Below, piece after piece: positions 3,130-32,183 of a stretch of 32,643 nt of DNA. The stretch's first letter is position 1; every line of letters starts with the position of its first letter. Below the pieces are notes generated by a model that had not been told where the DNA came from, did no database searches, and was given only the letters and a program-made list of their open reading frames with translations. Made by a program: the position numbers and the translations under genes. The DNA is taken from contig SUST01000015.1 in the NCBI GenBank assembly GCA_015063285.1, forward strand, positions 1 through 32,643, in the 5' to 3' direction. Source of the stretch: Thermoplasmata archaeon (GTDB lineage Archaea > Thermoplasmatota > Thermoplasmata > Methanomassiliicoccales > Methanomethylophilaceae).

Positions 3130-3609
3130 ATGTCCAAAGTCTCCATCATCATGGGAAGCAAGAGCGACCTTCCTGTCGCAGAGAAGGCCATATCGATCCT
3201 GAAGAAGTTCGGCGTCGCTTTCGATATAGATGTGGCATCGGCCCACAGGACCCCCCACAGGGTAGAGGAGCTGGTAACGAAGAGCGATGCTGATGTGTTC
3301 ATCGCCATCGCAGGACTCTCCGCGGCACTGCCAGGAGTGATCGCATCGTTCACCACCAAGCCCGTCATAGGGGTTCCAGTAAGCGGAACGCTCAGCTACG
3401 ACGCACTACTTTCCATCGTCCAGATGCCTCCAGGGATCCCTGTGGCATCTGTAGGTCTCGACCGCGGGGACAATGCGGCCGTGCTTGCGATAGAGATGCT
3501 CGCCATCGGCTGTCCCGATCTTCAGAAGAAGCTGTCCGATTACAGGCAGGAGCAGGCGGACAAGGTCATTGCCGATTCCAAGAAGGTAAAGGAAGATGTT
3601 GGGTGCTGA
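3130..3609 (+). CDS. purE: 5-(carboxyamino)imidazole ribonucleotide mutase (PurE)
   Basis: A 159-residue class I PurE, which converts N5-CAIR to CAIR in purine synthesis. The family signature is clear: [15 protein letters not shown] at the N-terminus, [12 protein letters not shown] near residue 42, [13 protein letters not shown] near 60, and the [28 protein letters not shown] stretch split across 80-110. The start has a strong AGGAGGA about 5 bases upstream of the ATG. Its end overlaps the start of the GMP synthase subunit gene by 14 bases, so the two are almost certainly translated from one message. This places a de novo purine step with the GMP branch. Confidence 0.95.
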
Positions 3610-4543
3610 GGATTTCATCAACGATACCATCGAGGACACCAGGTCCAAAATCACAGGCAAGGCCATCATAGCATGCTCCGGAGGAGTGGACTCCATGGTA
3701 GCCGCCGCACTGGTCCACAGGGCCATCGGAGACAGGTTATTGGCGGTCTACGTGGACAACGGGCTCATGAGGAAGGGCGAGACCGAGGAGGTCGAGCAGA
3801 TGTTCAAGTCCATGGGCTTCAACTACGTCATCGAGGATGCATCCGAGGAGTTCTTCGCCGCCCTGAAAGGGGTGACGGAACCCGAGCAGAAGAGGAAGAT
3901 CATCGGCGAGAAGTTCATCCGCGTCTTCGAGAGGAGGGCGAAGGAATACGGCGCAGAGTTCCTCATCCAGGGAACCATCGCTCCCGACTGGATAGAATCT
4001 GGGGACGGTGTCCGTGACACCATCAAGTCGCACCACAACGTCGGAGGACTCCCCAAGGAGATGGGCATGTCTCTGTATGAACCTCTGAGGGACCTCTACA
4101 AGGATGAGGTCAGGGACCTCGCCAGGATGCTGAACGTTGCCGCCTCCGAGAGGCAGCCCTTCCCGGGACCAGCCCTCGCGGTGAGATGCTTGGACGAGGT
4201 CACACCGGAGAACATAGAGGTTGTCCGCGAAGCGTGCTACATAGTTGAGGATGAGATCAGGAAGGCCGCCGAAGCGGGAAAGATGGAGCTCCCCTGGCAG
4301 TACTTCGCTGTGCTGCTTCCTTCCAAATCCGTCGGTGTCCAGGGAGACAGGAGGGCATACGGAAGGACCATCGCCATCCGCGCGGTGGCATCCATAGACG
4401 GTATGACGGCCACTTATGCGAAGATCCCCCTCGATGTCCTGGACGCGATGAGTCAACGCATCACGAACACCATGAAGCAATCCGTCAACCGTGTCGTGTA
4501 CGACATAACGAACAAACCTCCCGCGACCATAGAATGGGAGTGA
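3596..4543 (+). CDS. guaAB: GMP synthase, ATP-pyrophosphatase subunit (GuaA subunit B)
   Basis: A 315-residue protein with the PP-loop motif SGGVDS (residues 28-33) and the rest of the GMP synthase ATPPase and dimerisation domains, including [48 protein letters not shown] and the C-terminal [11 protein letters not shown]. It lacks the glutaminase domain, as usual for archaea in which GMP synthase is two polypeptides. The glutaminase partner is at 7715, separated by two ATPase genes. Subunit B adenylates XMP and aminates it with ammonia from subunit A. The ATG at 3596 lies inside the end of purE, behind a GGAAG element. Confidence 0.95.
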
Positions 4544-4710: not shown

Positions 4711-6048
4711 ATGGCGATGAAGAGGAAGATCTATTCGAAACTGCTCGAATGGAAGACGGAGAGCAACGGACAATCCGCATTGCTCATCGAAGGGGCCAGA
4801 CGTGTCGGCAAGAGCTTCATCGTCGAGGAATTCGGAAAAAACGAGTACGATTCCTACATTCTGATCAACTTCGGAAAGGTCGGGAAGGCATTCAGGGATC
4901 TGTTCGATGACCTATCTGACATCCCCTTAGTCCTTCAGAAGATCTCCAGCATGATGCGTGTCAAGCTGTATGAGCGCAGATCACTCATAATATTCGACGA
5001 AGCTCAGAAATTCCCCCGCGCCAGAGAAGCAATCAAATTCCTTGTCGCCGACGGCAGATACGACTACATAGAGACGGGCTCGCTCATCTCCATTCATGAG
5101 AACGTGAAGGACATCATCATCCCTTCCGAAGAGAAACGCATAAGGATGTACCCGATGGACTTCGAGGAGTTCTGCTGGGCCCTGGGCGATGAGACCACCG
5201 TTCCATTGATCAGGGAACATTTCGAAAAGAAACTGGCGCTCGGAAACGACCTGCACAAATCCATCATGGACCAATTCAGAAAGTACATGATAGTCGGAGG
5301 GATGCCAAAAGTTGTTGAGATATACGCTGCCACCCTCAATTTCGGAAAGGCGGAGGAACAGAAGAGGATGATCCTGGACCTCTACCGTGAAGACATCTCG
5401 AAAAAAGCCAAAGATAACAAACTGAGGACCATGAAGCTGTTCGAATCCATACCATCGGAGCTATCCAAACACGACAAGAGAGTAACGTTATCAGATATTG
5501 AGAAGCATGGCCGGATGAACAGCTTTGACGAACCTATCTACTGGCTGGAGGATTCGATGATAGCTAACGCTTGCTACAACTCCACCGTCCCCAGCGCGGG
5601 ACTGAATCTGAACACCGACCTGTCCTCGGTAAAGCTGTACATGGGCGATACTGGCCTGCTCGTAAGCCTGGCCATAAACGAGAACGAATCGATAGAGCAT
5701 GACATCTACGATTCCATCCTCAATGACAAGATGCATCTGAACGAGGGCATGTTCATGGAGAATATCGTCGCCCAGACCCTGAAGAGCAACGGACACAGGC
5801 TGTTCTTCCACACATTCTACAAGGACGACGGGAAGAACCGCTACGAGGTGGACTTCCTCGTGAGGCACGGGAAGAAGATCGATCCGATTGAGGTGAAATC
5901 CAGCGGTTATTCCAACCATTCCTCGCTGGACTACCTGATGAAGAAGCATTCCAAAACACTTGGGCAGCCATACGTCCTGTTCTCGAAGGATCTGAAGAAG
6001 GAAGGGAATGTCCTGTTCCTCCCGCTGTACATGGCGATATGCCTGTGA
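4711..6048 (+). CDS. AAA_14/DUF4143 ATPase with nuclease-like C-terminus
   Basis: A 445-residue P-loop ATPase. Walker A is EGARRVGKS (27-35) and Walker B is SLIIFDEAQ, with the family-typical YMIVGGMPKVVE in the middle. The C-terminal DUF4143 region has a PD-(D/E)XK-like pattern, YEVDFLV followed by PIEVKSSG. Proteins of this class are common and multicopy in gut bacteria and archaea, but their function is not established. Two in-frame starts exist (4711, 4717), both without a Shine-Dalgarno sequence, suggesting a leaderless message. It shares overall architecture with the next gene (6308), but each has its own upstream array. Both lie between the two GMP synthase subunit genes, which suggests they arrived as insertions. 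Confidence 0.88.
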   Translation: MAMKRKIYSKLLEWKTESNGQSALLIEGARRVGKSFIVEEFGKNEYDSYILINFGKVGKAFRDLFDDLSDIPLVLQKISSMMRVKLYERRSLIIFDEAQKFPRAREAIKFLVADGRYDYIETGSLISIHENVKDIIIPSEEKRIRMYPMDFEEFCWALGDETTVPLIREHFEKKLALGNDLHKSIMDQFRKYMIVGGMPKVVEIYAATLNFGKAEEQKRMILDLYREDISKKAKDNKLRTMKLFESIPSELSKHDKRVTLSDIEKHGRMNSFDEPIYWLEDSMIANACYNSTVPSAGLNLNTDLSSVKLYMGDTGLLVSLAINENESIEHDIYDSILNDKMHLNEGMFMENIVAQTLKSNGHRLFFHTFYKDDGKNRYEVDFLVRHGKKIDPIEVKSSGYSNHSSLDYLMKKHSKTLGQPYVLFSKDLKKEGNVLFLPLYMAICL

Positions 6049-6070
6049 ATACAGGATTTCTTGATCATCT

Positions 6071-6180
6071 TTTTATCCGGCTATAGACGGATAAAACCAT
6101 AATTCAAACATACTTTATCCTTCCATAGGAGGATAAAACCTCATTTTGGACGTGTTTTATCCTTCCATAAACGGATAAAA
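6071..6180. repeat. TTTATCC-N10-GGATAAA inverted repeat, three copies at exact 42-bp period
   Basis: TTTATCC starts at 6072, 6114 and 6156, and GGATAAA starts at 6089, 6131 and 6173. Each copy is a perfect inverted repeat with a 10-base spacer, and copies are exactly 42 bp apart, about four helical turns. The first copy extends to 9-bp arms (TTTTATCCG/CGGATAAAA). It starts 23 bp after the previous ATPase gene ends, so it could be read as a terminator, but three evenly spaced copies argue for protein binding sites. Confidence 0.85.
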
Positions 6181-6187
6181 ATTTGAT

Positions 6188-6300
6188 AAAACATGTATTT
6201 GAAGACCGTAAAATCCCTTCAAAACCTGTATTTGAAAGCCCGAAAAACTTGATAAAACATGTATTTGAAACTAATAAATACCTGTAAAAACATGTATCTG
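6188..6300. repeat. 16-mer direct repeat, four copies at exact 33-bp period
   Basis: AAAACATGTATTTGAA (6188), AAAACCTGTATTTGAA (6221), AAAACATGTATTTGAA (6254) and a truncated AAAACATGTATCTG (6287) start exactly 33 bp apart. A TATA-like AATAAATA (6273-6280) lies between copies three and four, so copy three abuts the promoter upstream and copy four covers the expected transcription start. The last copy ends 7 bp before the ATG at 6308. Binding should block or control this promoter. Confidence 0.85.
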
Positions 6301-6307
6301 CGATACG

Positions 6308-7666
6308 ATGGAAAGGCTTGCAATTAGGTATCTGGAACAGTGGATTGTATCCCCTGACAGGAAACCGCTCATTATTTGGGGGGCAAGACAGGTCGGCAAA
6401 ACATACCTCCTCCGTACCCTCTTCATGAAAGAGCACCCCAAGGCCCTATACATCGATCTAGCCAAGGATGAGGAAGCGAGATCGTTCTTCTCCACAACCT
6501 CCGACCCCGACAAGTATCTAAGATACATAGAGGCCCGCTACATGAAGAAGATAGGTCCGGACACGCCTCTGATATTCGATGAAATGCAGAGGTGCCTCTC
6601 AGTCCTCACATCCCTGAAATACTTCTGCCAAGAGCACAAGAAGATCCCCGTCATCGCTACGGGCTCCATGGTTAGACTGGCCATGATGGAGATGCAGAAG
6701 GAGAACAAGGATGACAGCTTCCTATTCCCCGTGGGCAGCGTCGACTCACTCGACCTCTACCCGCTTAATTTCGAAGAGTATCTCCTCAACGTCAACCCAG
6801 TGATGCTGGACCGCATTAGGGAATCATACAGATCCTGCAGACCTATGGAGAAGTACGAGCACGACCTTGCCACCGACCTCCTCCACGACTACATGTCGAT
6901 AGGGGGCATGCCGGAGGCCGTGGACAAGTTCATCAGAACGGGATCCTACGTGGATGTCTCCAAAACCCTGAGTTCCATCTACGACAACTATCTGGCGGAT
7001 ATGAGTCAATACAACATATCCCCGGAGATGATCCTTAAGACAAGGAAGGTCTACCAGAGCATCTTCTCCCAGCTGAACAAGGAGAACCGCAACTACAAGA
7101 TATCGCAGACTGACAAGGGAAAGACCAACCGGGACTATCAGAGCGCCTACATCTGGCTGGAGCTGGCCCGCGTAGTTCACAGGAGCCTTAACAAGACCGA
7201 CAAGGTCACCCTACCGCTGTCCGACTCCGACAGCAACCTTTTCAGGCTGTACCTGGGCGACATAGGGATGTTCACCTATCAGAGCGGGATCCCCTTCTCT
7301 GATTTCATCGCAAAGGACAAGAGAAACTCCCTCGCAGGAGTGTTCTACGAGAACTATGTCGCTGACGAGCTGGCCGCCAAGGGTATCGACCTCTACTACT
7401 GGACCGGAAAATCCCATCATGAATTCGAATTCATAGTCCCGAACCGCGGAAGGGTCGTTCCGATAGATGTGAAGAAGGGTTCGGGCACCATGAATTCCCT
7501 CAAGGCGTTCCGCGACCATAACCCAAAGGAGCTGGCGATAAAGGTCTCATCCAACAACTTCGGCTACGATGAGGAGAACATGATCCTCACCATTCCGCAT
7601 TACGCGATGTTCATGCTCGCGCAGGACCTCTCCGAGGATACTGACCCCGTCCTGGGATCCGAATAA
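6308..7666 (+). CDS. AAA_14/DUF4143 ATPase with nuclease-like C-terminus
   Basis: A 452-residue P-loop ATPase with Walker A WGARQVGKT (24-32), Walker B PLIFDEMQ, and the family motif YMSIGGMPEAVDKF. The C-terminus has the degenerate nuclease-fold pattern HEFEFIV then PIDVKKG, where the first acidic position is E-F-E rather than the usual E-V-D. It has the same domain order as the gene at 4711 but is clearly diverged from it. No Shine-Dalgarno sequence precedes the ATG, and the TATA position fits a very short leader. The gene is followed by the GMP synthase glutaminase subunit on the same strand. A role in genome defence or selfish maintenance is possible but unproven. Confidence 0.88.
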   Translation: MERLAIRYLEQWIVSPDRKPLIIWGARQVGKTYLLRTLFMKEHPKALYIDLAKDEEARSFFSTTSDPDKYLRYIEARYMKKIGPDTPLIFDEMQRCLSVLTSLKYFCQEHKKIPVIATGSMVRLAMMEMQKENKDDSFLFPVGSVDSLDLYPLNFEEYLLNVNPVMLDRIRESYRSCRPMEKYEHDLATDLLHDYMSIGGMPEAVDKFIRTGSYVDVSKTLSSIYDNYLADMSQYNISPEMILKTRKVYQSIFSQLNKENRNYKISQTDKGKTNRDYQSAYIWLELARVVHRSLNKTDKVTLPLSDSDSNLFRLYLGDIGMFTYQSGIPFSDFIAKDKRNSLAGVFYENYVADELAAKGIDLYYWTGKSHHEFEFIVPNRGRVVPIDVKKGSGTMNSLKAFRDHNPKELAIKVSSNNFGYDEENMILTIPHYAMFMLAQDLSEDTDPVLGSE

Positions 7667-7714: not shown

Positions 7715-8290
7715 ATGAAAGTCTACGTCATCGACAACGGAAGCCAGTGGACACACCGCGAGTGGCGCGTCCTGAGATACCTCAAGGTCGAAACCAAGAT
7801 CGTTCCGAACACAACACCGTTCGACGAGATCAAGGACGTGGACGGTCTGATCCTCTCCGGAGGAGCGCCCAACGTCGCCACCGAGGGCGCGGCCATGGGC
7901 AACAACGGAGAATATCTGGACAAGGCCGACTTCCCCATATTAGGGGTGTGCGCAGGTATGCAGTTCCTCTCAGAGCATTTCGGCGGTACACTGGGTCCAG
8001 GATCCACACCCGAATTCGGTGCCGTCCCGCTGAAGGTGACAAATCACGACGATCTCTTCAGGGACCTTCCCGACGAGTTCACGGTATGGGCATCCCACAA
8101 CGATGAAGTGAAAGTAGTCCCGGAGGGGTTCGATGTCATCGCATATTCCGACGGATGCCCCCATGAGGCGGTCCGCTGCAGGGACAGACCGATCTGGGGA
8201 GTGCAGTTCCATCCTGAGGTCGAGAACACCGAGCACGGGGTGGAGATCTTCCAGAACTTCCTCAGGATAATAGAGGAGCACGATTACTGA
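7715..8290 (+). CDS. guaAA: GMP synthase, glutamine amidotransferase subunit (GuaA subunit A)
   Basis: A 191-residue class I glutaminase that supplies ammonia to the ATPPase subunit encoded at 3596. The catalytic triad is visible: nucleophile C79 in GVCAGMQ, and H166 and E168 in QFHPEVE. The start MKVYVIDNGSQWTHREWR matches the archaeal GuaAA family. It is a stand-alone subunit of normal length. It lies 3.2 kb downstream of its partner subunit on the same strand, with two ATPase genes between, so it probably needs its own promoter in the 48-bp gap (a T-rich stretch at 7683-7688). Confidence 0.94.
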   Translation: MKVYVIDNGSQWTHREWRVLRYLKVETKIVPNTTPFDEIKDVDGLILSGGAPNVATEGAAMGNNGEYLDKADFPILGVCAGMQFLSEHFGGTLGPGSTPEFGAVPLKVTNHDDLFRDLPDEFTVWASHNDEVKVVPEGFDVIAYSDGCPHEAVRCRDRPIWGVQFHPEVENTEHGVEIFQNFLRIIEEHDY

Positions 8291-17413: not shown

Positions 17414-18643
17414 TCACATACAGAGCTTGTAGATCACTCTGGCGAACACCTTCGTGTCGTTTATCAGATTGTCTACCTTCAGATACTCGTTGGGCGCATG
17501 CAGTGAACCGTCCCCGGTCTGCCACGCATAAGCATCAAATCCCTTCAGCCTGAAGAAGTTCGCACAGGTGCCTCCTCCTATTCCGACAGCATAGGGTTCA
17601 ATGCCGCGCACCTCCTTGACCGAATCGCGGAGCGCTTTGAATCCTTCCGACTCGATCGATGACTGCCTTCCCGCTACAGCCTTCTGCAGGACCTCTACAG
17701 TGATCTTGGCCCCGGTGGATTCAGCATATACCTGAGCGGTCTCGTTCACCATGCTCAGGACGATATCCGGATCGTATTCAGGATTGAGACGTATGTCCAG
17801 ACAGAACTCGTCGTAGCCCGGGATCGTGTTCACGTTCTCGACCGTGGCGATTCTCTTGGTAGGCTCGAAAGTGGAATTCTTGGGCAGATACAGATCGTTG
17901 GTATCGCCGAACCTGCTGTCGAAGGACTCTATCAGATCCATGAGGAGGAGCGTGGATACCTTGTACGCATTGATGCCCAGATTGGGAGTTGATGCATGGG
18001 TGGTCTTCCCTTCCACACAGACCTTCAGCCACAGGATGTGCTTCTCCCCGACATCTATGTCCTCTCCATTGGGAGAGCAGTGGTCGGGCACCATTATGAT
18101 GTCGCCCGGTTTGAAGATGCCCTGATCTATGAGGTACTGGATCCCGTGGACGCTTCCGGTCTCCTCGTCGGCCACCAGGGCCAGGCCCAGGGACATCCCC
18201 TCGAGCTCGAGCCCGTTGAACTGCTTGGCGGCGAATATGGAGGATATGACGGACTGCCCGTCGTCCTCGGTTCCCCTTCCGTAGATCTTACCGTCCTTCA
18301 ATTCTGGCTCAAACGGCATAGTATCCCACAGCTCCAGATCCCCTACGGGCACAACATCCATGTGCGCGACGAACCACAGTGTCCCTTCCTTCTTCCCCTG
18401 TTTCACTGCAATTATGTTGGACCTCATCACATTCGGATCCGTTGCATCATGGACATCGTGCCTGGTGACGGTATCGAAACCGGTTAGCAGGGTCCAGAGG
18501 TAATCCGCTTTCTTGGATTCGCCGTCTCCGCCGTTGATCGGTGCGAGTGCGGGTATGCGTATCATATCCATCATGGACTCGATGATCTCCTGCTTAGAGG
18601 TCTCGATATCCTCCATGATGATCTCGAGGGACTTCATGCCCAT
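17414..18643 (-). CDS. M20-family metallopeptidase/deacylase (ArgE/DapE-like)
   Basis: A 409-residue dinuclear zinc hydrolase of the M20 family. Metal ligand motifs are in order: AHMDVVPVGD, GRGTEDDGQS (metal-bridging D), DEETGS (catalytic and ligand acids), VPDHCSPNGEDID, and the final HAPNEY. A lid/dimerisation domain (about 200-310) contains THAS. It could be a dipeptidase or an N-acyl amino acid deacylase; the substrate cannot be read from the sequence. Starts at 18643 and 18637 are both ATG, without a clear Shine-Dalgarno sequence. It lies between ftsY and the decayed AbiE locus. Confidence 0.9.
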   Translation of the reverse strand: MGMKSLEIIMEDIETSKQEIIESMMDMIRIPALAPINGGDGESKKADYLWTLLTGFDTVTRHDVHDATDPNVMRSNIIAVKQGKKEGTLWFVAHMDVVPVGDLELWDTMPFEPELKDGKIYGRGTEDDGQSVISSIFAAKQFNGLELEGMSLGLALVADEETGSVHGIQYLIDQGIFKPGDIIMVPDHCSPNGEDIDVGEKHILWLKVCVEGKTTHASTPNLGINAYKVSTLLLMDLIESFDSRFGDTNDLYLPKNSTFEPTKRIATVENVNTIPGYDEFCLDIRLNPEYDPDIVLSMVNETAQVYAESTGAKITVEVLQKAVAGRQSSIESEGFKALRDSVKEVRGIEPYAVGIGGGTCANFFRLKGFDAYAWQTGDGSLHAPNEYLKVDNLINDTKVFARVIYKLCM

Positions 18644-18675: not shown

Positions 18676-19524
18676 TCATTCGATTACGATCCTCTTGGAC
18701 AGGTCGATGAAATGTTCTGAGGACCAGTCTTCAGAGTTCTTGGAATCTAGAATATATTCACGAACATCATTTGATGCTTTCTCGTAATCTATTTCTTCAA
18801 AACGCTTGTACAGAATTGAAACCAGCATCTCTGCGTCCAATCCAGAACCTTCGTAGGCATTTTTGCCTTCCAAGATGCTCTCAAGGAACTGCATCCTTAT
18901 CCGAATTTTCCATTCTATGAATCTTTCATATTCATACAGAACCTGTCCGTTAACTGCATTATCTGAACAGATAATGTCCTAAACGATACATGCAAACAAG
19001 CTGGATTGATCCAATATAGTAACGCCGTAGTGGAAAGGATAGGTCTTGTAATGATGCTCCAGAGCGTAATTCTTTATTGCTTTCTTCACTATCTCAATCT
19101 CAACAATGATGGCATCATCTGAACTGAATGATCCGTGAACAGGCTCTTGAATTCCGATCCACTCCAAAACCTTTCTGGTGTTGACCTTGATAATGAATCC
19201 GTAAGTATCGAATCCTTCTCCATCCCTTTCTACCATATTGAAATTGATTCCGAAGGATTCGATTTCATCCCTCAGATATCCTGAGATCTTTCCTAATTCA
19301 ACCTTGCGGCCTTCATTCAAAATAACGAAACACAATTTCTCTGAATAAGTTTCCAGACCATGAAAGAGACTCAAAGAAGTGCTTCCCTACAACGCTGCAT
19401 ATCCAAAGAAGTTGCTACGATACAATCCTGTGAGTATTATCTCATTCAGATACCGTCTGACAAGCCTGACTGCATTTATTGGTTCCTGCGGACAAATATC
19501 TGTGATATGCCTCAATACATTCAT
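18676..19524 (-). pseudogene. AbiEii-type nucleotidyltransferase toxin with two in-frame TAG codons
   Basis: One frame of 283 codons runs from ATG 19522-19524, which overlaps the antitoxin stop as ATGA, to TGA 18676-18678. It is interrupted only by TAG at codon 46 (19387-19389) and codon 182 (18979-18981). The translation follows the AbiEii/AbiGii plan: GSTSLSLFHGLETYSEKLCF (47-66), where the family has GGT..L and SED.DF; DQSSLFAC before the second TAG; VNGQVLYEYERF where KGRD.YD is expected; and a C-terminal DV-Ws tail. The catalytic aspartates are replaced (K63, C65) and KGRD is lost (NGQV, 192-195). The absence of any frameshift is unusual for a dead gene, but the lost active site favours decay over pyrrolysine read-through. 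Confidence 0.72.
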
Positions 19525-20126
19525 ACAAACGGCTCCGTTGTATCAAGATAGTGGGATAGCATTGTAACGTTTCTAGATCTGTACAGTTGACTGAGCTGTC
19601 TAATCATATCCTTATCCATCTCGAATAGGATTTCTTCATCGACCCTCATATCCTCGAATAAAAGGGCTTCGAACTCTTTCTTGTTCAGGGCAACCCACTT
19701 CTTATACAATTTATCGCAGAGGGCCTTTTCCATTGTTGCAATATAGACGGCATAACCATACAGATTCATGCATTCAACCCCGATAGGGAATACCTGCTTA
19801 GGAACGTCAGAATAGAAGAAAATGCATTTATCCGTATGAAATGCCTTATCCTTGTGGTTTCCAAACGTTGCACAAGATACATTGTATGCGTATTCCGGTA
19901 TGATACCGTAAAAGGAAAGAGCATAGTCAAAAGAGACGTATGAGGGGCCATAGATAGACTGAGCCCACGCCAGCCTAGGTATATCCGCATTAGTCTCGTA
20001 CAGGTTCCTCTTCAACCGAACATACTTGCCAGCCTTTACATCTCTGCTCAATTTCTTACGAAGGTTAGAAGAGTCCCCATTCTCACTTATGTACGAATCA
20101 AGAATCATCTCTCCTGTACATATCAT
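19521..20126 (-). CDS. AbiEi-family antitoxin / transcriptional regulator
   Basis: A roughly 200-residue protein of the AbiEi antitoxin type. It has an N-terminal winged-helix segment (ILDSYISENGDSSNLRKKLSRDVKAGKYVRLKRNLYET region), then LAWAQSIYGPSYVSFDYALSFYGIIP and the family hallmark MEKALCDKLY near residue 145. In AbiE type IV systems this protein represses the operon and counteracts the AbiEii nucleotidyltransferase. The start is uncertain: ATG 20126 fits a leaderless message from a TATA-like AATATTT at about 20149, ATG 20108 follows AGGAGAG directly, and the frame opens at 20147. Its partner toxin downstream is broken, so it may now be an orphan. Confidence 0.8.
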   Translation of the reverse strand: MICTGEMILDSYISENGDSSNLRKKLSRDVKAGKYVRLKRNLYETNADIPRLAWAQSIYGPSYVSFDYALSFYGIIPEYAYNVSCATFGNHKDKAFHTDKCIFFYSDVPKQVFPIGVECMNLYGYAVYIATMEKALCDKLYKKWVALNKKEFEALLFEDMRVDEEILFEMDKDMIRQLSQLYRSRNVTMLSHYLDTTEPFV

Positions 20127-20218
20127 AATTGTTACACATACCGACAATATTTGAATTTGGCGCCGCGCCGTTGGTCCTACTGTTAAAGCAGATATTGTGA
20201 CAAAGAAGAGATAAATTG

Positions 20219-20250: not shown

Positions 20251-21600
20251 TCACTCGACGTATTTTTTGATGAAGCCTTCCTTCATCATCTGGGCGGTGA
20301 GGTTCCTTGACCTGTTGATCATGAACTCTGCCCTGTCGTGCATCTCCTGCCTGGAGAGCTTGAGCCTGGCGACGCCCTGCTCCTGAGCCTTTGCTCCGAC
20401 AGCGACGGCCTCGTCGATGAAGACCTCGGTCTCCGACATGGTCGGGACGATGTACTCGGGGGTGATTCCCTTCTTCTCTGCGGATGCGGCCAATGACCTG
20501 GCCGCAGCGATGCACATCTCGTCCGTGATGGTCTTGGCCCTTACGTCGAGCACACCGCGGAAGATTGCGGGGAATCCCATGGAGTTGTTGACCTGGTTGG
20601 GGAAGTCGGACCTTCCGGTTGCGAAGATCTTGCATCCATGCTCCTTGGCCTCCCAAGGCCAAATCTCCGGGATCGGGTTGGCGGTCGCGAAGATCACAGG
20701 GTCGTCCGCCATGAGGTCGACGTACTCAGGAGGTATGGTTCCGGGTCCGGGCTTGGATGCCGCGATAACGATATCCGCTCCCTCGAACGCTTCCTTCATT
20801 CCTCCGGTCTTTCCTGCACCGTTGGTCTTCTTACAGATCTCCCACTTCTGCTTGAATCCCTGCTCCACATCCGTCCTGGACTGGTTGAGGATTCCTTTGG
20901 AGTCGCACATGCACATGTGCTCGGGCTTGAATCCGGTCGCGAGAAGGAGCCTTGCGATTGCGATGGATGCCGCACCCGCTCCGATGACGGTGATGTGCGC
21001 ATCCTCGAGCTTCTTTCCCACGAGCTTCATGGCGTTGATCGCACCGGCGACCTCGACGGTGGCGGTTCCCTGCTGGTCATCATGCCATACGGGGATCTTG
21101 CAGTCCCTCCTGAGCTCGTCGAGGATGTCGAAGCACTTGGGGTTCGAGATGTCCTCGAGGTTGATTCCTCCGAACGAGGGCGCGATGAGCCTGACGGTCT
21201 CGATGATCTTGTCGGGATCCTTGGTGTCCAGACAGATCGGGACGCAGTCCACTCCTCCGAGATACTTGAAAAGCATTGCCTTTCCTTCCATGACGGGCAT
21301 GGCGGCCTCGGGTCCGATGTCTCCCAGACCAAGAACGCGTGTTCCGTCCGATACGACCGCAACGGTATTCCATTTCCATGTGTGCTCGTAAACCTTGTCG
21401 GGATTCGCTGCTATGTCCTTACAGGGCTCCGCAACTCCCGGCGAGTACCAAACGGAGAAGTCGTCGAAGGACCTTACACATGCCTTCGGTACGACCTCGA
21501 TCTTACCCCCGTAGTAGGGGTGCATCTTCATGGCGTCCTGTCCGGGCTTCTTCGCCTTGGCCAGACGCTCCTCTACGCTAATTTCCTGGTCGTTTGCCAT
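20251..21600 (-). CDS. NAD(P)-dependent malic enzyme (malate dehydrogenase, decarboxylating)
   Basis: A 449-residue malic enzyme of the short prokaryotic type, converting malate to pyruvate and CO2. The landmarks are SVWYSPGVAEPCKDI, SDGTRVLGLGDIGPEAAMPVMEGK, the conserved GGINLEDI, PVWHDDQQGTA and the Rossmann motif VIGAGAASIAIARLL. The C-terminal part contains IFATGRSDFPNQVNNSMGFPAIFRG (landmarks only). The ATG at 21600 is chosen because GAGGTGA lies at ideal distance just upstream; upstream in-frame sequence to 21741 lacks family similarity. In a methanogen it may supply pyruvate or reducing power for biosynthesis. A TATA-like TTATATAA (21672-21679) lies between it and the divergent RelB gene. 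Confidence 0.94.
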   Translation of the reverse strand: MANDQEISVEERLAKAKKPGQDAMKMHPYYGGKIEVVPKACVRSFDDFSVWYSPGVAEPCKDIAANPDKVYEHTWKWNTVAVVSDGTRVLGLGDIGPEAAMPVMEGKAMLFKYLGGVDCVPICLDTKDPDKIIETVRLIAPSFGGINLEDISNPKCFDILDELRRDCKIPVWHDDQQGTATVEVAGAINAMKLVGKKLEDAHITVIGAGAASIAIARLLLATGFKPEHMCMCDSKGILNQSRTDVEQGFKQKWEICKKTNGAGKTGGMKEAFEGADIVIAASKPGPGTIPPEYVDLMADDPVIFATANPIPEIWPWEAKEHGCKIFATGRSDFPNQVNNSMGFPAIFRGVLDVRAKTITDEMCIAAARSLAASAEKKGITPEYIVPTMSETEVFIDEAVAVGAKAQEQGVARLKLSRQEMHDRAEFMINRSRNLTAQMMKEGFIKKYVE

Positions 21601-21740
21601 TTCATTCACCTCGATACGTGCTGATACCCATCGCCAGCCGTAGTCGGTAATGAACCCCATTCTTATCCTAATTATATAATGATAAAGGAAAAGGCACCCC
21701 CATCCAGTTCTAAAACGGCGCGTAAAAAGATTATAATACA

Positions 21741-21770
21741 ATGTACGTACATAATATTATTAGTGATAAT
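21741..21770. promoter_or_regulatory. palindromic operator of the RelB/RelE pair
   Basis: ATGTACGTACAT (21741-21752) is a perfect 12-bp palindrome, followed by the palindrome ATAATATTAT (21751-21760) and an ATTAT-N5-ATAAT inverted repeat (21756-21770), all ending at the RelB ATG (21772). A TTATAATACA promoter element lies at 21731-21740. This is a typical place for antitoxin autoregulation. Confidence 0.55.
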
Positions 21771-21771
21771 A

Positions 21772-22089
21772 ATGAGCGATCTGCAGGTAGTAACAGCACC
21801 CAAGGACTACACTTATCAGCTGAGGATGAACAGTGAAATCAAAGCAGAATTGGAACGCATCTATGCAGAATGCGGAGTCACGTTATCAGATGCCATCAAC
21901 ATCTTCCTCCAGCAATCCTTAAACGAACACGGGTTCCCGTTCGCCGTTGTTTCAGACCAAACAGCATTCAAAAAGAAGAAGGTGCTCGATGAACTCCTGG
22001 AAATCCATATGAGAGGTATGCGTTCAGGATCCGAATATGGCTGGACGGACGACAGGGACATGGATGAGGAATTCGGAGGTTCTGAATGA
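21772..22089 (+). CDS. RelB/DinJ-type antitoxin
   Basis: A 105-residue antitoxin with a ribbon-helix-helix N-terminus (TYQLRMNSEIKAELERIYAECGVTLSDAINIFLQQSL, landmarks T15 to L50) as in RelB/DinJ, then NEHGFPFAV and a charged, probably disordered C-terminus that would neutralise the toxin. The ATG at 21772 has no Shine-Dalgarno sequence. Its stop overlaps the toxin start as ATGA, showing translational coupling. It likely represses its own promoter through the palindromes at 21741-21770. Confidence 0.82.
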   Translation: MSDLQVVTAPKDYTYQLRMNSEIKAELERIYAECGVTLSDAINIFLQQSLNEHGFPFAVVSDQTAFKKKKVLDELLEIHMRGMRSGSEYGWTDDRDMDEEFGGSE

Positions 22090-22382
22090 ACATCCTCTAT
22101 TCCCATGAGGCCAAAATTAGGATCAGAAACATTCGCTGCAATCTACCTCCGAAATACTCAGAAAGCATCCTGAATGAAATCAGAGAGGGCTGTCGCAGAT
22201 TGTCTGATTTCGCTGATTTGGGCTATATATTGGAAGAATCGGGAGCTATTCCGGTAAGAGTGCTCTTGGTGAAAGGATATGCCATCCTCTACGAACATGA
22301 TGATGAATCAGTCTACATCTCTGCAATTGAACCAATGAAATCAGACTGGATAGAAGTCTTCAATTTGAATGAACGTGAATAA
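22086..22382 (+). CDS. RelE/ParE-type toxin
   Basis: A 98-residue protein in the typical toxin position, overlapping the RelB-type gene by four bases. Features of the RelE/ParE superfamily are the helical hairpin at the N-terminus (MNILYSHEAKIRIRNI), LSDFADLGYI, and the beta strands VRVLLVKGYAILYEHDDESVYISAI. The length is normal. Family members are mostly ribosome-dependent mRNA nucleases, though catalytic residues vary and I cannot confirm activity. A radical SAM gene follows 17 bp downstream on the same strand and may be partly co-transcribed. Confidence 0.75.
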   Translation: MNILYSHEAKIRIRNIRCNLPPKYSESILNEIREGCRRLSDFADLGYILEESGAIPVRVLLVKGYAILYEHDDESVYISAIEPMKSDWIEVFNLNERE

Positions 22383-25853: not shown

Positions 25854-27281
25854 ATGGAATTCATAGGTCGCAAGAAGGAACTCGATCGTCTGCAAAACGT
25901 ATGGGAGAAGAACCGCTACAAGACCTGCGCCATATACGGCAGAAGGAGGATTGGCAAGACCACTTTGATCGAAGAATTCATCAAAGACAAGAATAACATC
26001 TCATTCTCCATGGTCAAAGGCACCTATGAGGAGAACGTCCAAAGGATGGCCTATGAGTTAATCGAAAAAGGGGAATCGGTCGAAAAACCTGAGCTTTACT
26101 TCGTTATGAAAGCATTGAAAGCAATATGTGTGAGGGAGAAAACAGTCATCGTATTCGATGAACTTCCCAATTTAACGCAGAACAAGGAGTCAGCTGCTTC
26201 GGAACTCCAGTTCTTCATAGATTGGATGGTGGATAACAGCGATTCTATGTGCATAATATGCGGTTCATCCATCTCCCTGATGATAAACGAAATAAAGAAC
26301 TCCTCAAAACCACTCTACCAAAGATTCATGTGCATAATCGAGCTGGGGCCGCTAACCATAGATGAGGTGCGCTGTTTCCATCCGAATATGGATGATAGGG
26401 ACCTTCTCAGGACCTATCTCATCCTAGGCGGCATCCCTCTGTACCATGAAAGCGCCAGAGGTCTTGACTTCAAAAGTATGATTGATGATTACGTACTCAG
26501 CAAAACCAGCAACTTCAATGAGGATGCGACCAACATCATCATGGTGGAGATGGGGACGTTGGGAATTCCTTCACTGTCAGTCTTGAATGCATTGAGCAAC
26601 GGTTCAGTGAGGTTCACAGAGATAGCGTCTGTAACCAAACTCTCTGATCGGATGGTCAGCAGATGTTTGGAAGGTCTCGAATCGATGAGACTTGTCTCCA
26701 AAAAACATCTCATGTGCGCAAATAGCAAACATCCTACATACATGATAACAGACAGCCCCATGGCATTCCATTACAGGATCGTAAGGAGATACTCTCCAAT
26801 TACTGCAACGAACGCCTCCAAATACGATTCTATGCATCAGCTGATATCATCATTCCTGGGAAGCCAATTTGAGGTTTATTGCAAAGACCTCGTAGCCAGG
26901 AATTATCCATGTTCAGAGATTGGTAGCTGGTGGGGCTCTGTCCCGGTCAGAGACTATGACGGTCAAATAATGAAAGACGGGAACGGGAAGACGATAACAG
27001 AGGATGTGGACATCGACCTGATCGCCACCGTCCGCAAAGGCAACAACCGCATAGACCTATTCGGAGAATGCAAATTCGATGGCAGCGAGGCCGATATTTC
27101 AGTATTTAACAAACTAAATGTGAGGGTCGAATCGCTGAGCGGAGGTTACAATCCACGTCTGATGATCATCGCTGTGAATGGGTTCGAGGAAGAACTATTG
27201 AACTATGCAAGCGCAGGATTGGTACTGCTTGTGAATCTGGACATGATAGTAGGAAAGGCCCCGCTTCCCGAGTTACCATAA
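25854..27281 (+). CDS. DUF234-type archaeal ATPase with nuclease-like C-terminus
   Basis: A 475-residue P-loop ATPase starting MEFIGRKKEL. Walker A is GRRRIGKT (29-36), identical to that of the gene at 1578, and Walker B is VIVFDELPN. A central winged helix (VRFTEIASVTKLSDRMVSRCLEGL region) is followed by a C-terminal DUF234 nuclease-like domain: EIGSWWGS, DVDIDLIATV and LFGECKF give a D-x-D plus E-x-K pattern. The EVGSWWGKV/EIGSWWGSV landmark is shared with the 1578 gene, confirming they are paralogues. It has no gene partner; priL lies upstream and the phospholipid gene is convergent downstream. Confidence 0.88.
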   Translation: MEFIGRKKELDRLQNVWEKNRYKTCAIYGRRRIGKTTLIEEFIKDKNNISFSMVKGTYEENVQRMAYELIEKGESVEKPELYFVMKALKAICVREKTVIVFDELPNLTQNKESAASELQFFIDWMVDNSDSMCIICGSSISLMINEIKNSSKPLYQRFMCIIELGPLTIDEVRCFHPNMDDRDLLRTYLILGGIPLYHESARGLDFKSMIDDYVLSKTSNFNEDATNIIMVEMGTLGIPSLSVLNALSNGSVRFTEIASVTKLSDRMVSRCLEGLESMRLVSKKHLMCANSKHPTYMITDSPMAFHYRIVRRYSPITATNASKYDSMHQLISSFLGSQFEVYCKDLVARNYPCSEIGSWWGSVPVRDYDGQIMKDGNGKTITEDVDIDLIATVRKGNNRIDLFGECKFDGSEADISVFNKLNVRVESLSGGYNPRLMIIAVNGFEEELLNYASAGLVLLVNLDMIVGKAPLPELP

Positions 27282-27294
27282 CCCTTGAGGGGGA

Positions 27295-27969
27295 TTACTC
27301 CTTCTTCTCGTTCTCCATCTTCCCAAGGTTCTTCCATGTGATGATGGCCCTCTGGATTGCAGTCAGATTGCCGACCACGGCGAACCAGAGCATCATGATC
27401 TCCAGCCAGTTGATGTCAAAGGCCCAAAATCCGAGATCGATGTAGAACGATCCCAGGTCGAATATCTCCATTATGTATTGGATGAGCGGGAACAGCGTGG
27501 ACAGCACGACCCTGTCCGCACGGCCCAGCAGACCTGCGTAGAGACGGGGAGCACCGATGGCCTGTGCCTGTGTTCCCATGTAGGATGTCAGAAGGACGCC
27601 GACCAGAGCGAGCATACCAAGGTACGGGTTGCACCAATATGCGCAGAAGGCGATTCCGCCTATCATGAACACATCGGCGTACCTGTCGAAGACATGGTCA
27701 AGATAGTCCCCTTTGGCGCTGCACTTGTTGCCCAATTTGGCGATCTTCCCGTCCAGAGCATCGAAATATCCCGATACGATGACCAATGCCGCCCCGACTA
27801 AGAGAAGCCAATGCCTGTCGTCATCGCCGCTGAGATAGAACACTACACCGCTGAGCAGTGCGACTATGAGCCCCAGCCACGAGACCAGATTCGGATTCAC
27901 ATTGATGAGTCTCTTGGCTACGGGGGCCAATGCGAAATCGGCCTTCGCTCTCTGTCCGTCTAGAACCAT
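27295..27969 (-). CDS. CDP-alcohol phosphatidyltransferase (archaetidylinositol phosphate synthase-like)
   Basis: A 224-residue membrane enzyme of archaeal ether lipid head-group synthesis. The CDP-alcohol phosphotransferase signature is present at about residues 69-95: DALDGKIAK, then KGDYLDHVFDRYAD, i.e. D-x2-DG-x2-AK-x8-G-x3-D-x3-D, with K in place of the usual R after the alanine. About five hydrophobic segments surround it. Archaeal homologues include archaetidylinositol phosphate synthase, but the exact alcohol cannot be read. Its ATG lies inside the end of the upstream kinase gene (10-bp overlap), so translation is coupled. It is the last gene of the operon. Confidence 0.87.
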   Translation of the reverse strand: MVLDGQRAKADFALAPVAKRLINVNPNLVSWLGLIVALLSGVVFYLSGDDDRHWLLLVGAALVIVSGYFDALDGKIAKLGNKCSAKGDYLDHVFDRYADVFMIGGIAFCAYWCNPYLGMLALVGVLLTSYMGTQAQAIGAPRLYAGLLGRADRVVLSTLFPLIQYIMEIFDLGSFYIDLGFWAFDINWLEIMMLWFAVVGNLTAIQRAIITWKNLGKMENEKKE

Positions 27970-28493
27970 TTGTCCATCTCCTGCGACCAGTCGGTCTTTC
28001 CAGGTAGGTAATCGTCGGACTCCCCTATTAGTATTTCTTCTATAGAGTCGGCCGAGACGGCTATTTCATTGCGTGAACAGTCGACCTCCCAAACGGGTAT
28101 ATCGGAATCGATCGCTTCACACAGAATAACGTCCAGGACCTCCGATTGGACGTTCTCGCAGACCTTCTGCTCGGAATATCCTCTAGCTCTAAGCCTCTCC
28201 GCCAGCACCTCGGGATGGCATCTCAGCACGATGATTCCGCTGCAGTCCATGAAATGAGAGAGATGGCTGTCCAGGATGTATAGGTCCTTACTCTTGCGAT
28301 ACTCTTCCAGAGAATCGTTTAGATCATCCAGGTCAACCTCGTGGGTGTCCCTTTCGGCATCCAGTTCTCCCAGGAGGCCATGGGATTTGATGTGATCCTT
28401 TCCGTCGATGACATTGTAACCTCTGGAGCGCAGCTCCGCTGAGATCGATGTCTTCCCGGTCCCGGGGGTGCCCGTGAGGGCATAGAGTGTCAT
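27960..28493 (-). CDS. Fap7/AK6-type putative adenylate kinase, ending in TAG
   Basis: A 177-residue P-loop kinase of the archaeal adenylate kinase 6 (Fap7/hCINAP) type: GTPGTGKT at 8-15, the DSHLSHFM loop near 75, and LRARGYSEQKVCENVQSE near 100 (lid region). Members phosphorylate AMP and also act in small-subunit ribosome maturation. The start overlaps the PfkB stop as ATGA and the end overlaps the next gene. It stops at TAG (27960-27962). A read-through would add 13 residues before a second TAG and a TGA 7 codons further on, and the protein is already of normal length, so TAG is taken as a true stop here. Confidence 0.85.
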   Translation of the reverse strand: MTLYALTGTPGTGKTSISAELRSRGYNVIDGKDHIKSHGLLGELDAERDTHEVDLDDLNDSLEEYRKSKDLYILDSHLSHFMDCSGIIVLRCHPEVLAERLRARGYSEQKVCENVQSEVLDVILCEAIDSDIPVWEVDCSRNEIAVSADSIEEILIGESDDYLPGKTDWSQEMDKWF

Positions 28494-31404: not shown

Positions 31405-31510
31405 TGAAATCTTTCTCCGATTGAACACATTATTTCCCTATCGTAGATAAACATGTACCGATACCATCCTCTTGCTGGCTGTACAGTAGCAGATATCGAT
31501 TATGAATATA

Positions 31511-31565
31511 CATCAATTGATGATGAATTATCAGCAAATATCTATATATTTTCATCATATGCTGA
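31511..31565. promoter_or_regulatory. interleaved inverted repeats around the RelB-PemK promoter
   Basis: CATCAATTGATG (31511-31522) is a perfect palindrome. ATGATGAA (31520-31527) pairs with TTCATCAT (31551-31558), and TCAGCA (31531-31536) with TGCTGA (31560-31565), so two inverted repeats interleave across the TATA element TCTATATATT (31541-31550). The TATA box is 25 bp from the ATG at 31571, implying a leaderless message. This is a likely autoregulatory operator. Confidence 0.55.
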
Positions 31566-31570
31566 TTATT

Positions 31571-31855
31571 ATGAAAGAAGCGAGTATAACGGTACGGATC
31601 AGTCCAGAATTCAAACAGAAGTGTGACAGTCTGTTTAATCAGCTTGGGATGAATACATCTGCTGCTATCAGTATATTCCTCCATCAAGCGGTCAGAGATC
31701 AATCAATGCCGTTCACCCCTTCCCTCAGAACACTGGACCAGGACGGTATCGCATCCAAACTGCCGGTCGTAGGGCGCTTCGATGAATCAGGGAACACGAT
31801 TCTCCCTTCCGAACTGGACAACCCGGAAGATGATGTATACGAACAGCTCCTGTAA
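31571..31855 (+). CDS. RelB/DinJ-type antitoxin
   Basis: A 94-residue antitoxin with a ribbon-helix-helix N-terminus (ASITVRISPEFKQKCDSLFN, then MNTSAAISIFLHQAVRDQSMPF) of RelB/DinJ type and a polar C-terminal tail. The ATG at 31571 fits a leaderless message. The toxin start lies inside its last 26 bases. It is related in plan to the antitoxin at 21772, but is paired with a different toxin fold. Confidence 0.83.
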   Translation: MKEASITVRISPEFKQKCDSLFNQLGMNTSAAISIFLHQAVRDQSMPFTPSLRTLDQDGIASKLPVVGRFDESGNTILPSELDNPEDDVYEQLL

Positions 31856-32183
31856 ATTCAGAAAATGGGATGTTTGGCTGGCCGACGTAAGATTTGAAAG
31901 CGATCCCAGCAAAAGCAAGATCAGACCTGTGGCCATCATCGAAGAAAAGGAAGTCTATGTGCTGTCTGTGCAGATAACATCCCACGAACCTCGCAAATTC
32001 CTTGAGGGAGAATACCAGATACAGTTTTGGGAATATGCTGGATTGGTGAAACCTTCAACTCTTCAATTAGGGCAGTTGATCAAAATCAAAGAAAAACACC
32101 TCCTAAAAAGAATCGGAAGGCTTCATGATATCGATATCAGGAATATCTTGGAGATTCTGCGTGAAAGCATTGTCGCGAACTGA
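31833..32183 (+). CDS. PemK/MazF-like toxin
   Basis: A 116-residue protein with the start of the PemK/MazF fold: RKWDVWLADVRFE, then SKSKIRPVAIIEEKEVYVLSVQITSHEPR, where the K-x-RP-V motif after the first strand is typical. It is followed by LVKPSTLQLGQLIKIKEK and a C-terminal helix. Family members are sequence-specific mRNA endonucleases. In-frame ATGs at 31830 and 31833 both lie in the antitoxin end, behind CCGGAAG. Antitoxin family RelB/DinJ with a PemK/MazF-like toxin is a mixed pairing. Confidence 0.75.
   Translation: MYTNSSCKFRKWDVWLADVRFESDPSKSKIRPVAIIEEKEVYVLSVQITSHEPRKFLEGEYQIQFWEYAGLVKPSTLQLGQLIKIKEKHLLKRIGRLHDIDIRNILEILRESIVAN

What the first reader, a model, noticed from the sequence alone, without database searches (positions are those of the whole stretch)
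18676..19524. Full-length AbiEii toxin frame interrupted only by two TAG codons in a probable pyrrolysine-using archaeon
Seen: the toxin frame starts as ATGA on the antitoxin stop and stays open for 283 codons to TGA, except for TAG at codons 46 and 182. There is no frameshift, and similarity to AbiEii continues across both. Known: Methanomassiliicoccales decode UAG as pyrrolysine in methylamine methyltransferases. Two readings follow: a toxin whose full-length synthesis depends on UAG decoding, or a pseudogene. The catalytic SED.D positions are K and C, and KGRD is NGQV, which favours decay.
Basis: partly seen in the sequence, partly recalled or inferred. Interest (0 to 1): 0.7.

Follow-up and report, generated by a model that had tools for sequence, protein, structure and literature searches.

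The report
Dead AbiEii toxin containing two UAG codons
A toxin gene in a gut methane-making archaeon has lost every residue it needs to poison the cell, yet its protein frame and fold look preserved straight through two UAG 'stop' codons, probably because this organism mostly reads UAG as the amino acid pyrrolysine; it is an interesting but modest extension of a known phenomenon.

Summary
On the minus strand, 18676-19524 is a 282-codon AbiEii frame, overlapping AbiEi by ATGA and interrupted only by TAG46 and TAG182. The host is a Methanomethylophilaceae MAG with pylS(C-term)-pylB-pylC-pylD and TAG-containing mtmB and mttB. In 69% of the genome, TAG ends about 2% of genes. Nine further non-methyltransferase frames contain an in-frame TAG mid-gene, with few or no genuine TAA/TGA equivalents, so UAG behaves largely as a sense codon. 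Intact syntenic orthologues in two sister species have Gln/His and Ser codons there, so the UAGs are lineage-specific. Catalytic motifs II-IV are destroyed (2 of 15 near-invariant polar residues remain), so the product cannot be a working AbiEii toxin. It is nevertheless not a simple pseudogene: 19/27 near-invariant structural residues and 60/69 hydrophobic-core positions are kept (orthologues 60-61/70), also after both TAGs, with no TAA, TGA or frameshift. Neutral-decay simulations almost never reproduce this. Best reading: a detoxified AbiEii pseudoenzyme whose frame and fold stayed under constraint, probably translated with two pyrrolysines. Main rival: a long-lived pseudoenzyme recently killed by two amber mutations. 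No protein evidence exists.

The parts
18676..19524 (-). abiEii-like frame, 282 codons plus TGA, with in-frame TAG at codons 46 and 182
   Evidence: AbiEii by PADLOC; syntenic orthologues
19387..19389 (-). TAG codon 46, next to motif I (orthologues CAG/CAC/CAG)
18979..18981 (-). TAG codon 182, in the motif III helix (orthologues TCC/TCT/TCC)
19521..20147 (-). abiEi antitoxin/repressor gene, intact and under ordinary constraint; ATGA overlap with abiEii
17414..18643 (-). M20-type peptidase gene 32 bp downstream, possibly co-transcribed; conserved flank
20251..21741 (-). malic-enzyme gene upstream (coding from about 21603); conserved flank of the AbiE site

Best explanation
The gene encodes a catalytically dead AbiEii (a DUF1814 nucleotidyltransferase-fold pseudoenzyme). 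AbiE was inherited vertically at this site, between the malic-enzyme and M20 genes. In this lineage the toxin lost its active site, while its hydrophobic core and reading frame stayed constrained. UAG is largely a sense codon in this genome, so changes to TAG at codons 46 (Gln/His in relatives) and 182 (Ser in relatives) act as missense changes to pyrrolysine and were tolerated. SHOWN: frame, host pyl genes, in-frame TAGs elsewhere in the genome, intact orthologues, loss of catalytic residues, retained structural pattern. INFERRED: UAG is actually decoded here; the frame is kept because a folded protein is made from an operon with the still-constrained AbiEi repressor and the downstream M20 gene. 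Premature termination there could be polar, or a misfolded product costly, or the folded dead protein may have some binding role (least certain).
For: Host decoding: pylS C-terminus at a contig edge followed by pylB (439.7 bits), pylC (312.8) and pylD (192.0), all over cut-off except the truncated pylS; two mtmB genes, each with one TAG. TAG as sense: in 1.24 Mb (987 genes) stops are TGA 866, TAA 101, TAG 20. Eleven in-frame TAGs lie between coding stretches, two of them in mtmB and mttB, the others including a Na/Ala symporter (E=1.7e-106 across the TAG), GT87 and YegS_C. Nearly all 26 TGA/TAA candidates are ordinary gene boundaries with a start codon just downstream, most with an SD-like site. 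Orthologues: intact syntenic copies in G064 and G050. Dead active site: 2/15 near-invariant polar residues kept versus 19/27 nonpolar, Fisher p=0.0009. Constraint: hydrophobic-core columns 60/69 versus 60-61/70 in orthologues, against 0.68-0.72 expected under neutral decay of the same depth (none of 300 runs per setting); by segment 10/10, 30/35, 20/24. Zero TAA/TGA has P about 1-7% under neutrality, and about 270 substitutions would be needed without one frameshift. AF2: pLDDT 89.6 versus 92.4 for the intact orthologue, with almost the same secondary structure.
Against: No peptide or ribosome-profiling evidence. dN/dS on the window branch is raised (0.14 versus 0.024 background, 2dlnL 6.5) though below 1 (2dlnL 10.8), and synonymous sites are saturated, so those values are soft. 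The constraint tests use living orthologues as stand-ins for the ancestor. A few genes, such as the kinase at 27960-28493, end with TAG at the orthologous terminus, so UAG may still terminate in part. Selection before a recent death would leave the same traces. The AF2 models share an alignment of intact relatives and so inherit confidence.
Confidence: 0.58

Rival explanations
1. Recent pseudogene: the toxin first became a structurally constrained pseudoenzyme, then died through two amber mutations; only a 45-residue stub, or little read-through product, is made now.
For: Two nonsense codons in a gene with a dead active site; GC3 fallen to 0.44 versus 0.60-0.67 in orthologues; raised dN/dS; AbiEii copies in sister genomes G072 and G077 are broken.
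Against: Both disabling changes are TAG, with no TAA, TGA or frameshift, in a genome where TAG occurs within other intact genes. The sister copies decay the opposite way: frameshift with catalytic residues still present.
Confidence: 0.3
2. Simple neutral decay: the toxin lost function and every site has drifted since.
For: Loss of half of the 42 near-invariant residues.
Against: Losses are concentrated in polar catalytic sites (2/15 versus 19/27 kept), core hydrophobicity is untouched, and there is no frameshift or TAA/TGA after the roughly 270 substitutions needed; simulations give P under 0.01 for the polar-loss and core contrasts at matched depth.
Confidence: 0.07
3. An active toxin gated by pyrrolysine supply: full-length toxin appears only when UAG is decoded.
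For: Two UAGs in a TA toxin of a Pyl organism.
Against: Motif II (R59T, D63K, D65C), III (K180I, R187S) and IV (R194Q, D195V, D198E) are lost; single substitutions at corresponding motif residues abolished AbiEii toxicity (PMC3985639). Orthologues lack the UAGs.
Confidence: 0.02
4. Assembly or base-call artefact in a metagenome-assembled genome.
For: Source is a 33-contig genome assembly.
Against: Two separate TAGs plus dozens of coordinated in-frame replacements and an in-frame deletion; flanks are clean and syntenic.
Confidence: 0.03

Closest known systems
AbiE type IV toxin-antitoxin system (AbiEi/AbiEii, DUF1814; PMC3985639)
   Same: Bicistronic order antitoxin then toxin, ATGA overlap, AbiEii homology along the whole frame, NTase-like fold
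   Different: The catalytic and NTP-binding motif residues, except G47 of motif I, are gone; two in-frame UAGs
MenT/TglT nucleotidyltransferase toxins (MenT3/Rv1045, 6j7s, 6y5u)
   Same: Among the best structural matches of the read-through model (Foldseek prob 1.00, TM about 0.4-0.5)
   Different: MenT3 is an active NTase; 10-15% sequence identity
In-frame amber genes of Methanomassiliicoccales (46 genes in ISO4-H5, PMC5011839)
   Same: UAG inside ordinary, non-methyltransferase genes of a Pyl-encoding methanogen
   Different: The ISO4-H5 genes named in the passage read include insertion sequences and cas3 but no TA toxin; the case here is a pseudoenzyme with two UAGs
Archaeal 'Pyl code' with all TAG codons read as pyrrolysine (Science 2025; own recollection, paper not in the library)
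   Same: Would predict that these TAGs are sense codons
   Different: Whether this genome was covered there is unknown to me; full reassignment is not shown here

Membership tests
AbiEii toxin (DUF1814 NTase) | Sequence similarity over the whole protein | tested here: met
   PADLOC AbiEii E=2.3e-42, residues 15-280; Pfam below cut-off
AbiEii toxin (DUF1814 NTase) | Motif I hG[G/S] and motif II R..DhD | tested here: not met
   Motif I kept as GS; motif II R59T, D63K, D65C; residues required per PMC3985639
AbiEii toxin (DUF1814 NTase) | Motif III Lys/Arg and motif IV +DxxD | tested here: not met
   K180I, R187S; R194Q, D195V, D198E
AbiEii toxin (DUF1814 NTase) | Toxicity neutralised by AbiEi without binding | not testable with these tools
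   Needs expression assays
AbiE operon | AbiEi gene directly upstream | tested here: met
   AbiEi E=1.7e-54, ATGA overlap
UAG-decoded (pyrrolysine) gene | Host encodes pylS, pylB, pylC and pylD | tested here: met
   pylS C-term at contig edge, pylBCD; pylT and the rest of pylS not seen because the contig ends there
UAG-decoded (pyrrolysine) gene | UAG acts as sense codon outside methyltransferase genes of this genome | tested here: met
   Nine further in-frame TAGs against few or no genuine TAA/TGA; some terminal TAGs remain
UAG-decoded (pyrrolysine) gene | UAG position conserved in orthologues | tested here: not met
   Gln/His and Ser codons in G064, G050, G056
UAG-decoded (pyrrolysine) gene | Peptide with pyrrolysine at the site | not testable with these tools
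   No proteomics available
Pseudogene | Absence of selective constraint on the frame | tested here: not met
   Core and structural residues retained; neutral simulations reject at matched depth; dN/dS below 1 but saturated. A recent death cannot be excluded

The most novel reading that the evidence does not exclude
A former toxin has been turned into a maintained, non-catalytic AbiEii protein carrying two genetically encoded pyrrolysines with a role of its own, for example as decoy or partner in the AbiE operon. It would be a non-methyltransferase protein whose full-length synthesis relies on UAG decoding.
Probability: 0.2. Interest if true: 0.7.

Novelty: new variant of a known kind. Interest (0 to 1): 0.48.

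Why it matters
It warns that in pyrrolysine-coding archaea an in-frame TAG is not by itself evidence of a pseudogene, and that TA annotation by homology can call a detoxified pseudoenzyme a toxin. It also gives a clean test gene: if peptides span both UAGs, UAG decoding is general in this organism and not reserved for methylamine methyltransferases.

Tried and rejected
A release-rescue RNA search (alpha_tmRNA) was an ill-chosen family for the tRNA-Pyl question and found nothing. The codon-model dN/dS for AbiEii is dominated by synonymous saturation (branch lengths about 7-40) and was kept only as weak support. Searching PDB sequences with the profile gave only a 25-residue match to H. pylori NTases. 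Papers on the archaeal 'Pyl code' were not in the library. I first took the second AbiEii of the genome as an intact control, but it has SEVLDF in motif II, so it may be inactive too. TGA/TAA 'interruptions' from the coding scan turned out to be mostly gene boundaries.

Full report
OBSERVATION. The frame lies on the minus strand. Window 18676-19524 reads ATG to TGA with TAG at codons 46 and 182 and no other interruption. Its ATG overlaps the stop of the upstream gene as ATGA. With TAG read through, the protein matches AbiEii over its length (PADLOC, E=2.3e-42) and the upstream gene matches AbiEi (E=1.7e-54). Pfam's AbiEii model gives only 18.8 bits, below its cut-off, which fits a diverged member.

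HOST. The window is contig C15 of a 1.79 Mb, 97% complete genome assembly in 33 contigs. Contig C13 begins inside pylS (86 residues of the C-terminal domain) and continues pylB, pylC, pylD. Two mtmB genes each hold one TAG. So the host is a pyrrolysine user; pylT and the start of pylS fall off the contig end.

IS UAG A STOP HERE? In 1.24 Mb of the genome (69%), a simple coding scan gave 987 genes with terminal TGA 866, TAA 101, TAG 20. Eleven TAGs sit in frame between two coding stretches. Two are mtmB and mttB. Others lie in a sodium/alanine symporter (one Pfam hit, E=1.7e-106, across the TAG), a GT87 membrane protein, a YegS-type lipid kinase, a flavodoxin/ferredoxin protein and an HD-domain protein. 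In the symporter the TAG replaces Glu or Gln of sister species, and the rest of the gene is intact and 80% identical to the G064 orthologue. The same scan's TGA and TAA candidates are nearly all gene junctions with a start codon directly after the stop; three or four are unclear or antisense-like. If nonsense mutations were the cause, about half should be TAA/TGA: 9 of 9 has p=0.0016, and 9 of 12 (counting unclear ones) p=0.06. UAG is thus largely a sense codon in this genome. It may still terminate in some genes: the kinase at 27960-28493 ends with TAG where the L023 orthologue also ends. Published work agrees: UAG is avoided as a stop in this order (PMC3941956), and 46 ISO4-H5 genes contain in-frame UAG (PMC5011839). 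I recall a 2025 Science paper on a full archaeal Pyl code, but it is not in the library.

ORTHOLOGUES. G064 and G050 carry malic enzyme - AbiEi - AbiEii - M20 peptidase - FtsY in the same order. G054, G055, G062 and G059 have malic enzyme next to M20 with no AbiE between. AbiE at this site was therefore probably present in a common ancestor of the three species. The orthologues are uninterrupted and have CAG/CAC at site 46 and TCC/TCT at site 182. The UAGs are private to the window lineage among the genomes held.

ACTIVE SITE. Against 89 homologues, 42 columns are at least 95% conserved. The window protein keeps 21; the intact orthologues keep 41-42. The loss is not random: 2 of 15 polar residues remain but 19 of 27 nonpolar ones (Fisher p=0.0009). 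Lost are R59, D63, D65 (motif II), K180, R187 (motif III), and R194, D195, D198 (motif IV). In AbiEii, single substitutions R63A, D67A/E, D69A/E, K173A, R180A and D192A each abolished toxicity (PMC3985639). The protein is therefore very unlikely to be a toxin, with or without read-through.

CONSTRAINT. Starting from G064 or G050 and mutating neutrally until the same number of conserved residues is lost takes about 260-300 substitutions. Such sequences hold on average about 2.5-4.5 TAA/TGA (none in only 1-7% of runs), keep 7 polar and 14 nonpolar conserved residues (polar no more than 2 in at most 0.75% of runs), and keep 68-72% of hydrophobic-core columns. The window protein has no TAA, TGA or frameshift and keeps 60/69 core columns, the same as intact orthologues (60-61/70); no run out of 300 per setting reached that. 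The pattern holds before, between and after the TAGs: 10/10, 30/35, 20/24; the last segment alone is not significant (P about 0.08). Codon models give omega 0.14 on the window branch, above the background of 0.024 but below 1; synonymous saturation makes these values soft. AbiEi shows no relaxation. AlphaFold2 gives pLDDT 89.6 for the read-through protein and 92.4 for the intact orthologue with nearly the same elements; both inherit confidence from the shared alignment. The closest solved folds are MenT3/TglT and H. pylori NTases.

INTERPRETATION. The sequence fits a long-lived pseudoenzyme: the active site was free to vanish while the fold was kept. The two UAGs sit where a change to pyrrolysine would be mild or irrelevant in a dead enzyme. 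Why the fold was kept is open. Candidates are the cost of a misfolded product from an operon with AbiEi, polarity on the M20 gene 32 bp downstream, or a binding function. Sister copies that decay (G072, G077) do so the opposite way, by frameshift with catalytic motifs still present.

WHAT REMAINS UNSURE. A constrained pseudoenzyme killed recently by two amber mutations would look almost the same. The preference for TAG over TAA/TGA, here and genome-wide, favours decoding, but only peptides or strain-level data can settle it.

Noticed in passing
G000:C1:145029-145802 (L001:1405-2283): The only other AbiEii of the genome has an open frame and intact motifs III and IV, but motif II reads SEVLDF: the first catalytic Asp is Val. 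Both AbiEii copies of this genome may be non-toxic.
   Followed up: partly
G000 C1:243472, C4:25239, C17:19246, C2:226976, C7:9079, C1:169774 (joined-stretch coordinates): In-frame TAG in ordinary genes: flavodoxin/ferredoxin, Na/Ala symporter, YegS-like lipid kinase, GT87, HD-domain protein, Sel1-repeat protein.
   Followed up: partly
27960-28493 (-): Adenylate-kinase-like gene ends with TAG at the orthologous terminus, overlapping the next gene's start; a second in-frame TAG follows 14 codons later. The ISO4-H5 paper also lists an adenylate kinase gene with an amber codon.
   Followed up: no
L031 (G077) about 5895-6694; L030 (G072) about 6029-6876: Two sister-species AbiEii copies are frameshifted (G077 also has a TAG) while their catalytic motifs remain.
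   Followed up: partly
L167 (G070:C61:6022-7245): M20 peptidase orthologue with one in-frame TAG in a sister species: UAG as sense codon may be wider in the genus.
   Followed up: no
1578-2969, 4711-6048, 6308-7666, 25854-27281: Four ATPase genes of the archaeal AAA type (by eye), two of them between the guaA-like ORFs 3596-4543 and 7715-8290.
   Followed up: no
21679-22382 and 31502-32183: Two further small gene pairs that look like toxin-antitoxin modules of RelB/DinJ type (by eye).
   Followed up: no
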